A stretch of DNA of 64,000 bases from positions 1 through 64,000 of the forward strand of contig JAFAMD010000068.1 in assembly GCA_019233755.1 (NCBI GenBank), given 5' to 3'. Position numbers and translations under genes: made by a program. This document shows, in pieces, positions 9,487 to 36,642 of this stretch; the first letter of the stretch is position 1, and each line of letters opens with the position of its first letter. Origin of the DNA: Acidobacteriaceae bacterium (lineage in GTDB: Bacteria > Acidobacteriota > Terriglobia > Bryobacterales > Bryobacteraceae). The notes under the pieces are model-generated. The model was not told the DNA's origin. It saw only the letters and a list, made by a program, of their open reading frames with translations, and searched no databases.

Positions 9487-9830
9487 GAAACCGGATTTTT
9501 CCGCACTTCTTGAAGAGAACCGGCCACCTACCCGCCGCCGGTCCAATGAGACGGGCAGCGGTTTTCAGCCCGAATGCCTTGCGGGCGTCCGCCTCAGCGC
9601 GCGAGGATGTCAGTACGATTACCGGGATCCTGCAAGTGACAGCTTATTTTCGCAGGTTGAGGTCGAGAAAAACCAGGTCAGGACACCACTTCTGAATGGC
9701 GGAAAGCAGGCGCCCGTCGTCGGGGTTGTCTTCAATCAGCTGAAGCAACTCGACACAACCGGAACCGCCGAACGGCAGCTGAACTTCAATCCAAGGCAGG
9801 CAGTTGCCTGTTCCGGTTTTGCATCAATTG
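9487..9830 (-). pseudogene. Decayed receiver domain, possibly the C-terminal remnant of a hybrid histidine kinase
   Basis: Minus-strand reading frame: GTGNCLPWIEVQLPFGGSGCVELLQLIEDNPDDGRLLSAIQKWCPDLVFLDLNLRK*AVTCRIPVIVLTSSRAEADARKAFGLKTAARLIGP. Receiver motifs IEDNPDD, PDLVFLDLNL and IPVIVLTSS.AEAD.RKAF lie in one frame interrupted by a TAA, with apparent internal deletion. Confidence 0.65.
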
Positions 9831-9882
9831 CTAAAGGTTTCCGCCCCTGAAGCCGATAGAGGAGTAAGAACTCGTATTCTCG

Positions 9883-11067
9883 ATGGCTACTCAATCGACG
9901 CCGTATTGTGGGGACTCTTTGCCGCTCGGAGACTGGAATGTGTCCGATTCGGCAGCCGGCAAGCCGGAACGGAGCGCCGGCCAAGCCAAGATTCTGCTTG
10001 TCGAAGCTTCGGCTGCCAACCGGCGAAAGATGCGGAGCGCTCTGGGCGAGTTTGAATACGAGCTGATAGAAGCAGGCACGACCTCGGAGGCGGTTGCAGC
10101 GGTATCTCTAAACGCCGTGGACCTGGTCCTTATTGATCTGCTTGCTCCGGAGATGGGTGCAACCGAGTTCTGCCGCATGCTGAAGAGGGCACCCGCCACG
10201 CAATTCCTGCCGGTGTTCGTGGTGGCCGGTTTCGATGACATCGAAGCCGAAGTACGTGCAATCGAGGCGGGAGCCGATGAATTCCTGATTGCGCCCCTGC
10301 GCCCCAAGGCATTCCGCGCGCGGGTGCAGGCAAGCTTGCGCTACAAGGCAATGATCGATTCGCTGGATGATTCCGAGACGGTGCTGTTTTCGCTGGCGCA
10401 GTCTGTAGAAGAACGGGATCCGACCCTCGGCCAACACTGCCAGAGGCTCTCGCTGATGGCCGCGGCCATGGGAATCGCGCTCAATCTGCCGCCGCAGGAT
10501 ATCGCCACACTGCAGCGCGGCGGATATCTCCACGATATCGGCAAAGTCGCCATCCCCGACAGCGTTCTTTTCAAACCCGGCCCGCTCAACGAAGAAGAGT
10601 GGGCAATCATGAAGAGCCATACGGAGAAAGGTGAGCGGATCTGCAGTCACATGCGCACCTTGACCGATATTCTTCCGATCATCCGTCATCACCATGAGCG
10701 TTGGGACGGCTCCGGATACCCGGACGGTCTGAAGGGAGAAGAAATTCCGCTGCTGGCACGCATCCTGCAGATGGCAGATGTCTACGATGCGCTTACAACG
10801 GCCCGGTGCTACAAACGTGCGCTCCTGCCGGAGGAGGCCATCGAGGTTATGAGCGATGAGGCGAAGAGAGGCTGGCGCGATCCGAATATGGTGGAATTGT
10901 TCATCGATATTCTGCCGATGTTCCGAACGCAGGCGCCGGCCGATTTTTCCCGTCTCTCACTGAACGCGCTTGCCTCCTCGCTCGAGAAGTTCCGCAAGCA
11001 GCCGGCGCGAAGCTCCAGCAGAACATCGCTTTTCGAAAACCAGTTCCAGTTGGCGAACGGGTTGTAG
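9883..11067 (+). CDS. Response regulator with HD-GYP domain (RpfG-like cyclic-di-GMP phosphodiesterase)
   Basis: N-terminal receiver (KILLVEASAANRRKMRSAL...VDLVLIDLLAPEM) plus HDIGKVAIPD...HHERWDGSGYPDGLKGEEIPLLARILQMADVYDALTT. Confidence 0.93.
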   Translation: MATQSTPYCGDSLPLGDWNVSDSAAGKPERSAGQAKILLVEASAANRRKMRSALGEFEYELIEAGTTSEAVAAVSLNAVDLVLIDLLAPEMGATEFCRMLKRAPATQFLPVFVVAGFDDIEAEVRAIEAGADEFLIAPLRPKAFRARVQASLRYKAMIDSLDDSETVLFSLAQSVEERDPTLGQHCQRLSLMAAAMGIALNLPPQDIATLQRGGYLHDIGKVAIPDSVLFKPGPLNEEEWAIMKSHTEKGERICSHMRTLTDILPIIRHHHERWDGSGYPDGLKGEEIPLLARILQMADVYDALTTARCYKRALLPEEAIEVMSDEAKRGWRDPNMVELFIDILPMFRTQAPADFSRLSLNALASSLEKFRKQPARSSSRTSLFENQFQLANGL

Positions 11068-33588: not shown

Positions 33589-33777
33589 ATGAACAAGCGT
33601 GATCTCGCCCGAAGCCTGGCCCGGAAATCGCACCGCTCGCGCGCGAAGGCGGCCGACGACGTCGACAGTCTCGTGCATCGCCTTTTGAAAGATTGGAAAC
33701 GTACGCGCCCCGCGGACGAGTCCAAAGAATCTTCTGCGGCCGATCTGATGCCGCAAAGAGCCAGCAATGAACCGTAG
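33589..33777 (+). CDS. Small HU-like protein (only the N-terminal helices of a bacterial HU/IHF fold)
   Basis: MNKRDLARSLARKSHRSRAKAADDVDSLVHRLLKDWKRTR aligns by eye to HU N-termini (MNK..L...IA......A......D........K); 11-nt overlap with the next gene. Confidence 0.6.
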   Translation: MNKRDLARSLARKSHRSRAKAADDVDSLVHRLLKDWKRTRPADESKESSAADLMPQRASNEP

Positions 33778-34342
33778 CGTCCGGGCAAGAGCGCTGCTTC
33801 AATTGATCGATCGATACCTCCGCGAAGGGGCGTCAATCGAAATCGACGGCCTGGGCAGCTTCAAGCTCGATGATTCGAATCAGGTGATCTTCGAGCCGAA
33901 CGGCCGCATTCCCGTGTTCCTGGCTTATGCGGAGGAGGATCGCGCTGAAGCCCGGCGGCTCTACACCGTCCTGCAGAAAGCCGGCTTCGAGCCCTGGATG
34001 GATCGGGAAAAACTCTTGCCCGGCCAGAACTGGGCGCGCGCGATCGAGCGAGCCATCGACATTTCCGAGTTTTTCATCGGCTGCTTCTCACGCCGCTCGG
34101 CCGCCAAGCGGGGCCATTTTCAGTGCGAGCTCGAATATGCGCTGGGCGTTGCCTCGCGCGTACCGGCCGAAGAGATTTTCTTCGTCCCGGTTCGTCTCGA
34201 CGAATGCAGAGTGCCGCCGCACATCGAGAAAAAAACACAATACGTCGATCTGTTCCCCGATTGGGAATACGGCGTCGGTCAGTTGTTGAAAGCGATGTGG
34301 CACCAGACGCTCGAGCGAGGCCGGAAGGTCACGCTCCGCTAG
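33767..34342 (+). CDS. TIR-domain protein with N-terminal truncated HU-like module
   Basis: N-terminus ALLQLIDRYLREGASIEIDGLGSFKL (HU alpha2-beta-like), then IPVFLAYAEEDRAEARRLYTVLQKAGFEPWMDREKLLPGQNWARAIERAIDISEFFIGCFSRRSAAKRGHFQCELEYAL...IFFVPVRLDECRVPP (TIR). Confidence 0.85.
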   Translation: MNRSVRARALLQLIDRYLREGASIEIDGLGSFKLDDSNQVIFEPNGRIPVFLAYAEEDRAEARRLYTVLQKAGFEPWMDREKLLPGQNWARAIERAIDISEFFIGCFSRRSAAKRGHFQCELEYALGVASRVPAEEIFFVPVRLDECRVPPHIEKKTQYVDLFPDWEYGVGQLLKAMWHQTLERGRKVTLR

Positions 34343-34767
34343 ATTTTTTCCAGCTTCTTTTTCGCTTCGTGCGCCAGCTTAGAGTCGGGATCTATCTGAA
34401 TGACGCGTTGAAAAGCGATTTTCGCCGCGTCTTTGTTCTTCAGCTTCTCTTCGGCTTCGCCCAATTTAAAGAACGCCTCGGCATTGCTGGGATTGAACTT
34501 CGTCGCCCGCTCGTAGCGGGCCACGGCGGCGCGATAGCCGCTAGGGCCGCCTTTGCGCATGTAGAAGTTGCCGACCTTGACGTTGCGCTCGGATTCGAGC
34601 GGGTTCAGCACGAATTTTTCCGGTGCAACAGTATCGTCTTCCTCCGGAGGGTTCCCCTCTTCAGGAGGCGACTGCGGCTGCTGGGCGGGCTTCTGCTGAT
34701 CCTGCGGCAGTAGCGCAGCCGAGAAAAACAGGCCGAGGAGCGATGCAAAAGACACTCTGCGTGTCAC
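34339..34767 (-). CDS. Secreted TPR-repeat protein
   Basis: Signal peptide; YERATKFNPSNAEAFFKLGEAEEKLKNKDAAKIAFQRVIQIDPDSKLAHEAKKKL. Confidence 0.8.
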   Translation of the reverse strand: MTRRVSFASLLGLFFSAALLPQDQQKPAQQPQSPPEEGNPPEEDDTVAPEKFVLNPLESERNVKVGNFYMRKGGPSGYRAAVARYERATKFNPSNAEAFFKLGEAEEKLKNKDAAKIAFQRVIQIDPDSKLAHEAKKKLEKI

Positions 34768-34788: not shown

Positions 34789-36642
34789 GTGAATTTACGC
34801 GAAAAAGTAGCGCAGCTTCCCACCCAGCCGGGCGTTTACCTCTATAAAGACGCACAAGGAAAGATTCTTTACGTCGGTAAGGCGAACAATCTTCGCAGCC
34901 GGGTCAGAAGCTACTTCAATGAAGACCGTCTCGCGGAGGCCAAGACCGGAAGCCTGATTTCGGAAGCACGCGACATCCACTTCATTCAGGTCGACAACAA
35001 CAAAGAGGCGCTGGCGCTCGAAAACAATCTCATTAAGCAGTACAAGCCGCGATTCAACGTACTGCTCCGCGACGACAAAACCTACCCCTACGTAAAGCTC
35101 ACGAACGAAAAGTACCCGCGTGTCTACGTCACCCGGCGCATCCTGAACGACGGCGCCGGCTACTACGGTCCTTATTTTCCCGGAAACCTGGCGCACCGGC
35201 TGGTTCATTTTATTCACCGGCATTTCAAGGTGCCGTCCTGCAAGATTGATCTGAACCGGAAGCACACGCATCCGTGCTTGCAGTATCACATCCATCGGTG
35301 CCTTGGGCCGTGTGCATCCGGGCTGACCACCGACGAAGCATACGCGGACGCTGTTCGCGATGTCCGGCTGTTTCTCGAAGGACGCCACCGCGATCTGGCC
35401 GAAGAACTCGAGGATCGTATGCAGGTTGCCTCCGAGGAGATGCGGTTCGAAGAGGCTGCTAGCCTGCGAAACCTGATCACGACAGTTCGCGAGATGGATC
35501 AGAAACAGAAGATGGCGGCGGTCGAAGGCGAGGACATCGACATCTTTGCGTACCATGCGGAGCCGCCGCTGGTCGCGGTGAACCTGTTCCACCTTCGCAA
35601 AGGGAAGATCGTCGACCGGCGCGAGTTCTTCTGGGAAGATCAGGAGAATTTCGACGTGGCGGAGTTTTTCGAGGCGCTGCTGAAGCAAGTTTATCTCAAC
35701 AGCCAGTACATTCCGGCAACAATTCACGTGCCTGCGGACTTCGAACAGCGCGAAGAGCTGGAAGAATTTTTGTCGGAACTGCGGGGACGAAAAGTGGAGA
35801 TTCTCACTCCGCAGCGCGGAACGAAGAAGGCGCTCCTCGGGCTTGTCGAGATGAACGCGAAGAACAGCTTCGACCAACGCTTCCGCGTAATGAGACCTTC
35901 TTCGAAGGCAATCGGCGAAGCGCTGCAGGATGCACTGAATCTGGCCGAACCGCCGCGCCGTATCGAGTGTTTTGACATCTCGCACATTCAAGGCACCGAC
36001 AAAGTTGCGAGCATGGTCGTCTGGGAAGACGGTCGGATGAAGAAATCGGACTACCGCAAGTTCATTATCCGGACGGTTATCGGCAATGACGATTTCGCTT
36101 CGATGCGCGAGGTGATCCGGCGCCGCTACTCCAAGCTGCAGGAAGAGAAAAAACCATTCCCCGGGCTGGTGCTGGTGGACGGCGGTTTGGGTCAACTGCA
36201 TGCGGCAGCGGAGGTACTCGAAGATCTCGGCATCACCTATCAGCCGCTTGCGTCGATTGCAAAGCGGGAAGAGTGGATCTACGTTTACGGCCAGGAAGAT
36301 GAACCAATCGTGCTCGAAAAGTTCTCGCCGATTCTGCACCTGGTACAGACGATTCGCGATGAGGCGCACCGCTTCGCGGTAACGTTCCATCGCACACGCC
36401 GCAACGCGCAGCGCCTGACATCCGAGCTGCATAATGTGCCCGGCATCGGCCCCAAGTCAGTAGAGAAACTGCTGCGCACGTTCGGCAGCCTGGAGCGGGT
36501 ACGCGCCAGCTCAAAAGAAGAGCTGGCCAAAGTGGTGGGGATGGCGTGCGCGAACCGGCTCGCCGCTTATTTCGCGGCGAACCCCGGATCGCCGCTCGTG
36601 CAGCTCGAAAACGCTTTACAAGCCGGCGAGCAGACCGGCTAA
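34789..36642 (+). CDS. uvrC: Excinuclease ABC subunit C
   Basis: LPTQPGVYLYKDAQGKILYVGKANNLRSRVRSYF (GIY-YIG), FDISHIQGTDKVASMVVWEDG, LHNVPGIGPKSVEKLLRTFGSLERV. GTG start. Confidence 0.97.
   Translation: MNLREKVAQLPTQPGVYLYKDAQGKILYVGKANNLRSRVRSYFNEDRLAEAKTGSLISEARDIHFIQVDNNKEALALENNLIKQYKPRFNVLLRDDKTYPYVKLTNEKYPRVYVTRRILNDGAGYYGPYFPGNLAHRLVHFIHRHFKVPSCKIDLNRKHTHPCLQYHIHRCLGPCASGLTTDEAYADAVRDVRLFLEGRHRDLAEELEDRMQVASEEMRFEEAASLRNLITTVREMDQKQKMAAVEGEDIDIFAYHAEPPLVAVNLFHLRKGKIVDRREFFWEDQENFDVAEFFEALLKQVYLNSQYIPATIHVPADFEQREELEEFLSELRGRKVEILTPQRGTKKALLGLVEMNAKNSFDQRFRVMRPSSKAIGEALQDALNLAEPPRRIECFDISHIQGTDKVASMVVWEDGRMKKSDYRKFIIRTVIGNDDFASMREVIRRRYSKLQEEKKPFPGLVLVDGGLGQLHAAAEVLEDLGITYQPLASIAKREEWIYVYGQEDEPIVLEKFSPILHLVQTIRDEAHRFAVTFHRTRRNAQRLTSELHNVPGIGPKSVEKLLRTFGSLERVRASSKEELAKVVGMACANRLAAYFAANPGSPLVQLENALQAGEQTG

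What the first reader, a model, noticed from the sequence alone, without database searches (positions are those of the whole stretch)
33589..34342. Two-gene HU-like / HU-TIR locus: candidate NAD-targeting effector coupled to a nucleoid-type module
ORF1 (62 aa) reads like only the N-terminal helices of HU (MNKRDLARSLARKSHRSRAKAADDVDSLVHRLLKDWKR). ORF2 overlaps it by 11 nt. It starts with a second HU-like helix plus the beta segment (ALLQLIDRYLREGASIEIDGLGSFKL), lacks the DNA-binding arms, and passes directly into a TIR domain (VFLAYAEEDRAEARRLY; BB-loop DREKLLPGQNW; RGHFQCELEYAL with Glu121 as candidate catalytic residue). Established knowledge: bacterial TIR domains often are NAD+-consuming immune effectors, and HU binds DNA as a dimer. 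Inference: ORF1 may pair with or restrain the truncated HU module of ORF2, giving a DNA-state- or phage-sensing TIR system unlike the standard Thoeris layout.
Basis: partly seen in the sequence, partly recalled or inferred. Interest (0 to 1): 0.85.

Follow-up and report, generated by a model that had tools for sequence, protein, structure and literature searches.

The report
Conserved HU-like plus HU-TIR gene pair
Two short, overlapping genes, one encoding a stripped-down relative of the DNA-packaging protein HU and the other a second HU remnant joined to a probable NAD-destroying TIR domain, are kept together in about four of five sampled genomes of one soil-bacterium family (probably Bryobacteraceae), which suggests a long-lived two-part molecular switch for which I found no earlier description.

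Summary
ORF1 (33589-33777) and ORF2 (33767-34342) are real overlapping genes. ORF1 alone matches HU only weakly (E 0.21), but its family profile hits solved HU proteins at 8.8e-9. ORF2 is a short HU-like module (armless, CCDC81-like) plus a TIR_2 domain with a candidate catalytic glutamate, E121, invariant in 56/56 sequences and aligned with residue E77 of SPARTA TIR-APAZ proteins, a known catalytic position.

New here: the pair is a family-wide module. Full-length HU-TIR orthologues occur, one per genome, in about 82 of 101 sampled genomes of the family (probably Bryobacteraceae); one more copy lies outside it. ORF1 lies directly upstream in all 71 loci read, never fused, often overlapping by 4 nt. 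Nearly half of the loci sit beside uvrC, and one genome without the pair shows a decaying remnant there. The two proteins diverge in step, beyond background relatedness. No relative was found in phages or viral contigs; plasmids gave TIR-only matches.

Best reading: a two-component TIR switch in which ORF1 and the ORF2 N-terminus form an HU-type heterodimer controlling a NADase. Enzyme activity, complex, trigger and any defence role are untested. DNA or phage sensing is unsupported: both modules lack HU's DNA-binding arms.

The parts
33589..33777 (+). ORF1: small basic HU-like protein (helix 1 + helix 2 of HU; low-complexity tail in place of the beta hairpin in this genus)
   Evidence: present next to ORF2 in 71/71 loci; family median pI 10.8
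33767..33910 (+). ORF2 N-terminal armless HU-like module (HU helix 2, strands 1-3; G28 and G30 of 'DGLG' invariant in the 30-row alignment)
   Evidence: PF18175 in 23/30 members, best 1.5e-5; homologous to ORF1 by hhalign, probability 95.8; AF2 H3-19, E24-26, E30-34, E40-44
33911..34342 (+). ORF2 TIR domain and C-terminal helix, then stop; candidate catalytic E121 at 34127-34129
   Evidence: TIR_2 5.9e-26; E121 56/56; aligned with SPARTA TIR-APAZ residue 77; Foldseek TIR hits to 9.5e-8
33767..33777 (+). 11-nt overlap of the end of ORF1 and the start of ORF2; in relatives most often a 4-nt start/stop overlap
34339..34767 (-). Convergent TPR-repeat protein gene between ORF2 and uvrC; a neighbour, not thought to be part of the unit
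   Evidence: same gene cluster in 17 of 41 loci, window included
34789..36642 (+). uvrC; a neighbour that marks the shared chromosomal site
   Evidence: same strand downstream in 19 of 41 loci, 17 of them within about 2 kb; UvrC coordinates in 30 genomes agree

Best explanation
ORF1 and ORF2 form a two-component TIR switch kept mainly by vertical descent in this family. ORF1 (HU helices 1-2, often with the hairpin) and the ORF2 N-terminus (HU helix 2 plus strands) assemble through an HU dimer-type interface into an armless HU heterodimer that holds the ORF2 TIR domain in a controlled state. On an unknown signal (stress or infection) the complex rearranges, TIR domains pair, and E121-dependent cleavage or cyclisation of NAD+ follows, limiting or killing the cell. 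Shown: the two genes, the homologies, family-wide co-conservation, co-divergence and the conserved candidate catalytic Glu. Inferred: heterodimer, control of the TIR, NADase activity, trigger and outcome.
For: ORF1 next to ORF2 in 71/71 loci with tight or overlapping junctions. ORF1 divergence tracks ORF2 (Mantel 0.63, p=0.001), also after removing UvrC divergence (0.61, p=5e-4). Among 17 family genomes without ORF2, five gave a weak ORF1-profile hit: four read out as full-length HU proteins, the fifth is an ORF1-like remnant in G420. Profile and fold evidence for HU in ORF1 and for a CCDC81-like HU in ORF2; the two modules are homologous to each other. Candidate catalytic Glu invariant and aligned with SPARTA TIR-APAZ residue 77, the catalytic mutant position in a SPARTA study, a system in which TIR assembly is needed for NADase function (PMC10474274).
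Against: No enzyme assay, no complex prediction, no toxicity data. The W of the WxxxE motif reported for most bacterial TIR NADases (PMC11374754) is not conserved here (position 117 varies; F118 is invariant instead), although the SPARTA TIR aligned here lacks it too. In the window's genus ORF1 has lost the HU hairpin, so only a helical HU-type contact is possible there. Single copy in about 81% of the family is unusual for a suicidal effector. ORF2's AF2 model is only moderate (mean pLDDT 71, 4-row alignment).
Confidence: 0.45

Rival explanations
1. Housekeeping NAD-signalling module: the HU pair is a stable scaffold and the TIR makes a low-level NAD-derived signal (or removes NAD caps from RNA) in normal physiology, not immunity.
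For: About 82/101 family genomes, one copy each; often at the same uvrC-linked site; ORF2 divergence correlates with UvrC (0.31, p=0.002); no relative in phages or viral contigs, TIR-only matches on plasmids. NAD-RNA decapping by TIR proteins is described (PMC10937652, abstract).
Against: Absent from about 17-19% of family genomes, including nearly complete ones, with a decaying copy in one, so it is dispensable; bacterial TIR enzymes with known roles are mostly in defence (own knowledge and abstracts).
Confidence: 0.25
2. Toxin-antitoxin-like pair: ORF1 directly blocks ORF2, and loss or degradation of ORF1 releases a toxic TIR.
For: Small basic upstream partner in overlapping or closely spaced frames in all 71 loci; pairwise co-divergence; ORF1 remnant found only next to a broken ORF2.
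Against: Stable chromosomal site, no sign of spread on mobile elements; many TIRs need activation by assembly and are not toxic alone (own knowledge).
Confidence: 0.15
3. DNA-state or phage-DNA sensor: the HU modules bind DNA and switch the TIR on.
For: ORF1 is basic (median pI 10.8, median net charge +7) and homologous to HU.
Against: HU binds DNA with long arms between strands 2 and 3; both modules lack them. ORF2's closest Pfam HU type is CCDC81-like, proposed to act in protein-protein contacts (own knowledge). No phage link.
Confidence: 0.1
4. The TIR is a non-enzymatic adaptor that recruits other TIR proteins of the genome.
For: Family genomes carry further TIR proteins fused to kinase, FGE-sulfatase-like and NTPase-like regions.
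Against: E121 and other active-site-region residues (D58, W77, D79, W89, F118) are invariant in 56/56 sequences.
Confidence: 0.05

Closest known systems
SPARTA (short Argonaute + TIR-APAZ)
   Same: Two-gene TIR system; best PDB relatives of ORF2's TIR; catalytic E77 position aligns with E121
   Different: No Argonaute, no APAZ domain; the partner is a 62-aa HU-like protein; no guide-binding part
Thoeris (ThsB TIR + ThsA)
   Same: Small TIR protein encoded next to a partner gene
   Different: No ThsA-like effector next to it; only a weak ThsB match (PADLOC 0.0033); no HU modules in Thoeris
CCDC81-like bacterial HU proteins (PF18175) and HU-HIG (PF18291)
   Same: HU modules without long arms; both ORF families match PF18175
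   Different: Here the two HU modules are on separate proteins and the second is fused to a TIR; the window's ORF2 is below Pfam's cut-off and its ORF1 does not match PF18175 alone
Canonical HU / IHF
   Same: ORF1 helices 1-2 match HU; pairing as in IHF is a model
   Different: No DNA-binding arms, no last helix
Other bacterial TIR_2 proteins (fused to kinase, FGE-sulfatase-like or NTPase-like regions)
   Same: Same TIR subfamily, 33-41% identical
   Different: No HU module, no ORF1 partner seen; TIR-only relatives occur in other lineages including plasmids

Membership tests
TIR domain (PF13676 TIR_2) | Profile match above curated cut-off | tested here: met
   91.8 bits against cut-off 28, full profile 1-122; 30/30 relatives match
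Bacterial TIR NADases | Conserved glutamate in helix C at the catalytic position | tested here: met
   E121 56/56, aligned with SPARTA residue 77
Bacterial TIR NADases | W of the WxxxE motif named for most bacterial TIRs (PMC11374754) | tested here: not met
   Position 117 variable; invariant F118
Bacterial TIR NADases | NAD+ cleavage | not testable with these tools
   Needs an enzyme assay
HU/IHF superfamily (ORF1) | Helix 1-helix 2 core | tested here: met
   the window member alone is below Pfam's cut-off
HU/IHF DNA-binding proteins | Long DNA-binding beta arms and C-terminal helix | tested here: not met
   Absent in the ORF1 and ORF2 families
CCDC81-like HU (PF18175) | Profile match above curated cut-off by the window protein | tested here: not met
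   ORF2 21.1 bits against 35; relatives reach 4.8e-9 for ORF1 and 1.5e-5 for ORF2, their bit scores were not printed
Thoeris | ThsA partner gene | tested here: not met
   Neighbours are ABC ATPase and permease, TPR protein, uvrC
SPARTA | APAZ domain and short Argonaute partner | tested here: not met
   ORF2 ends after the TIR; the partner is HU-like
Anti-phage defence system | Protects against phage | not testable with these tools
   Needs phage challenge

The most novel reading that the evidence does not exclude
A previously undescribed two-component TIR NADase system in which a split, armless HU-type heterodimer is the control device, kept by vertical descent in one bacterial family as a stable cell-fate switch.
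Probability: 0.35. Interest if true: 0.8.

Novelty: new variant of a known kind. Interest (0 to 1): 0.62.

Why it matters
TIR enzymes in bacteria are known mainly as patchy anti-phage effectors controlled by Argonaute, SAVED, STING or phage-protein sensors. A TIR controlled by split HU-type modules and kept in most members of a family would add a new control principle and suggest that a TIR can become a stable part of bacterial physiology. It is also a small, clonable two-gene set with a clear point mutant (E121A) for testing.

Tried and rejected
Chance similarity: rejected by profile searches and conservation. Frameshift of one HU-TIR gene: rejected; ORF1 and ORF2 carry two separate, homologous HU modules and are never fused in 71 loci. 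In-frame stops flagged by the genome search in seven family orthologues: in the four read out (G180, G217, G236, G169) the frame is open from the HU module to the end, so the flagged stop lies before the start; the other three were not checked. Mobile or phage origin: no hit in phages or viral contigs, TIR-only matches on plasmids. Known defence family: PADLOC gave only TIR-part matches. A further conserved partner gene: only the TPR gene and uvrC recur often, at part of the loci. Remnants beside uvrC in 16 genomes without the pair: found in one only. Literature: no report joining HU and TIR found in an open-licence library; most subscription papers are not covered.

Full report
WHAT IS THERE. 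ORF1 (33589-33777) and ORF2 (33767-34342) are read on the + strand and overlap by 11 nt. Upstream lie an ABC-transporter ATPase and its FtsX-type permease; downstream a convergent TPR-repeat gene and uvrC. ORF2 residues 50-174 are a TIR_2 domain (5.9e-26); residues 14-46 match CCDC81-like HU weakly (2.8e-4); ORF1 alone matches HU at only 0.21. PADLOC shows matches to the TIR part only.

RELATIVES. Among 100 related genomes most members of the window's family carry one ORF2 orthologue of 44-72% identity that includes the HU-like N-terminus. Public titles of three of them say Bryobacteraceae, Bryobacterales and Acidobacteriaceae, so the family is probably Bryobacteraceae (inference). In a class-wide sample 84 of 101 family genomes match at E<=1e-25; two of these (G101, a kinase-TIR; and G350, a fragment) are not full orthologues, leaving about 82. 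Outside the family one genome of the class (G099) has the full form with ORF1; contamination of that assembly was not excluded. In 396 genomes drawn from the phylum, matches outside the family start at profile position 36 or later and so are TIR only.

ORF1 IS A REAL PARTNER. An ORF1 homologue lies immediately upstream of ORF2 in all 71 genomes read (30; 26 further; 15 further), above shuffled controls wherever these were computed. The junction is most often a 4-nt start/stop overlap, which suggests translational coupling (inference). No fusion was seen. Typical ORF1 reads M-K-K-x-E-L-A ... A-A-D-x-L-D-R-x-V ... L-R-x-G ... L-P-G-L-G-x-F: HU helix 1, helix 2 and hairpin. The window's genus keeps the helices but has replaced the hairpin with a low-complexity tail. 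Of 17 family genomes lacking ORF2, five gave a weak ORF1-profile hit; four read out as full-length HU proteins and one, in G420, as an ORF1-like remnant. Eight genomes with ORF2 run as controls all gave the expected hit, though two divergent ones scored low (25-31 bits), so sensitivity is not perfect.

HU NATURE. 25 of 30 ORF1 members match PF00216 and 19 match PF18175. The ORF1 profile finds HU of known structure at 8.8e-9, aligned over residues 1-58. 23 of 30 ORF2 members match PF18175. ORF1 and ORF2-N align with each other by hhalign at 95.8% probability over helix 2 and the strands. AF2 gave ORF1 as two helices that superpose on HU at 1.1 A over 38 residues, Foldseek probability 0.99 but E 0.39. 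Both modules lack the DNA-binding arms.

TIR. Across 56 unique sequences F51, Y54, E57, D58, W77, D79, G86, W89, F118, E121, P133, P141, R143, C147, P150 and P164 are invariant. E121 aligns with residue 77 of SPARTA TIR-APAZ chains; E77A is the catalytic mutant in a SPARTA study (PMC10474274; equivalence across SPARTA proteins is inferred from numbering). The Trp of the WxxxE motif named for most bacterial TIR NADases (PMC11374754) is absent. The ORF2 model's best PDB matches are SPARTA TIR-APAZ. The closest other TIRs in family genomes are parts of kinase, FGE-sulfatase-like and NTPase-like proteins (partner regions named by eye).

DESCENT. uvrC follows ORF2 on the same strand in 19 of 41 loci, 17 of them within about 2 kb, and the TPR gene in 17; UvrC coordinates in 30 genomes agree. 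ORF2 distances correlate with UvrC distances (Spearman 0.31, permutation p 0.002), ORF1 with ORF2 0.63 (p 0.001), and ORF1 with ORF2 given UvrC 0.61 (p 5e-4). In G420 an ORF1 remnant and scattered TIR fragments lie within 1 kb before uvrC: an apparent ancestral copy in decay. Fifteen other genomes without the pair show no detectable remnant beside uvrC. No viral or phage relative was found in the collections searched; plasmids hold TIR-only similarity. This points to vertical descent with repeated loss; one protein marker is a modest yardstick.

MECHANISM. I favour an armless HU-type heterodimer controlling an E121-dependent NADase. The gene pair, homologies, co-conservation and co-divergence are shown; pairing, enzyme activity, trigger and outcome are inferred. 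I cannot decide between a defence or suicide role and a housekeeping signalling role: high prevalence and a stable site favour the latter, dispensability and general TIR biology the former.

CAVEATS. The text library holds open-licence papers only; a 2017 survey of HU superfamily clades that I recall was not found there, so an earlier mention of HU-TIR cannot be excluded. Most genomes are draft assemblies, so absence counts are approximate.

Noticed in passing
L178 and L187 (G420:C187, about 9600-10500): A genome without an intact pair carries an ORF1-like remnant and broken TIR fragments just before uvrC, an apparent decaying copy at the shared site.
   Followed up: partly
window:33700-33777 and the ORF1 genes of L004-L013: In the window's genus ORF1 has lost the HU hairpin (LPGLG) and carries a low-complexity tail instead.
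   Followed up: partly
L103 (G099:C71:3618-4178): A lone full HU-TIR with ORF1 in a genome of another family of the class; gene transfer and assembly contamination were not separated.
   Followed up: no
window:34339-34767: Small TPR-repeat protein gene converging on ORF2 with a 4-nt overlap; the same gene cluster recurs near ORF2 in 16 of the 40 other loci compared.
   Followed up: partly
L106-L118: Genomes of the family and class hold several other TIR_2 proteins with kinase, FGE-sulfatase-like, phosphoesterase-like and NTPase-like partner regions.
   Followed up: partly
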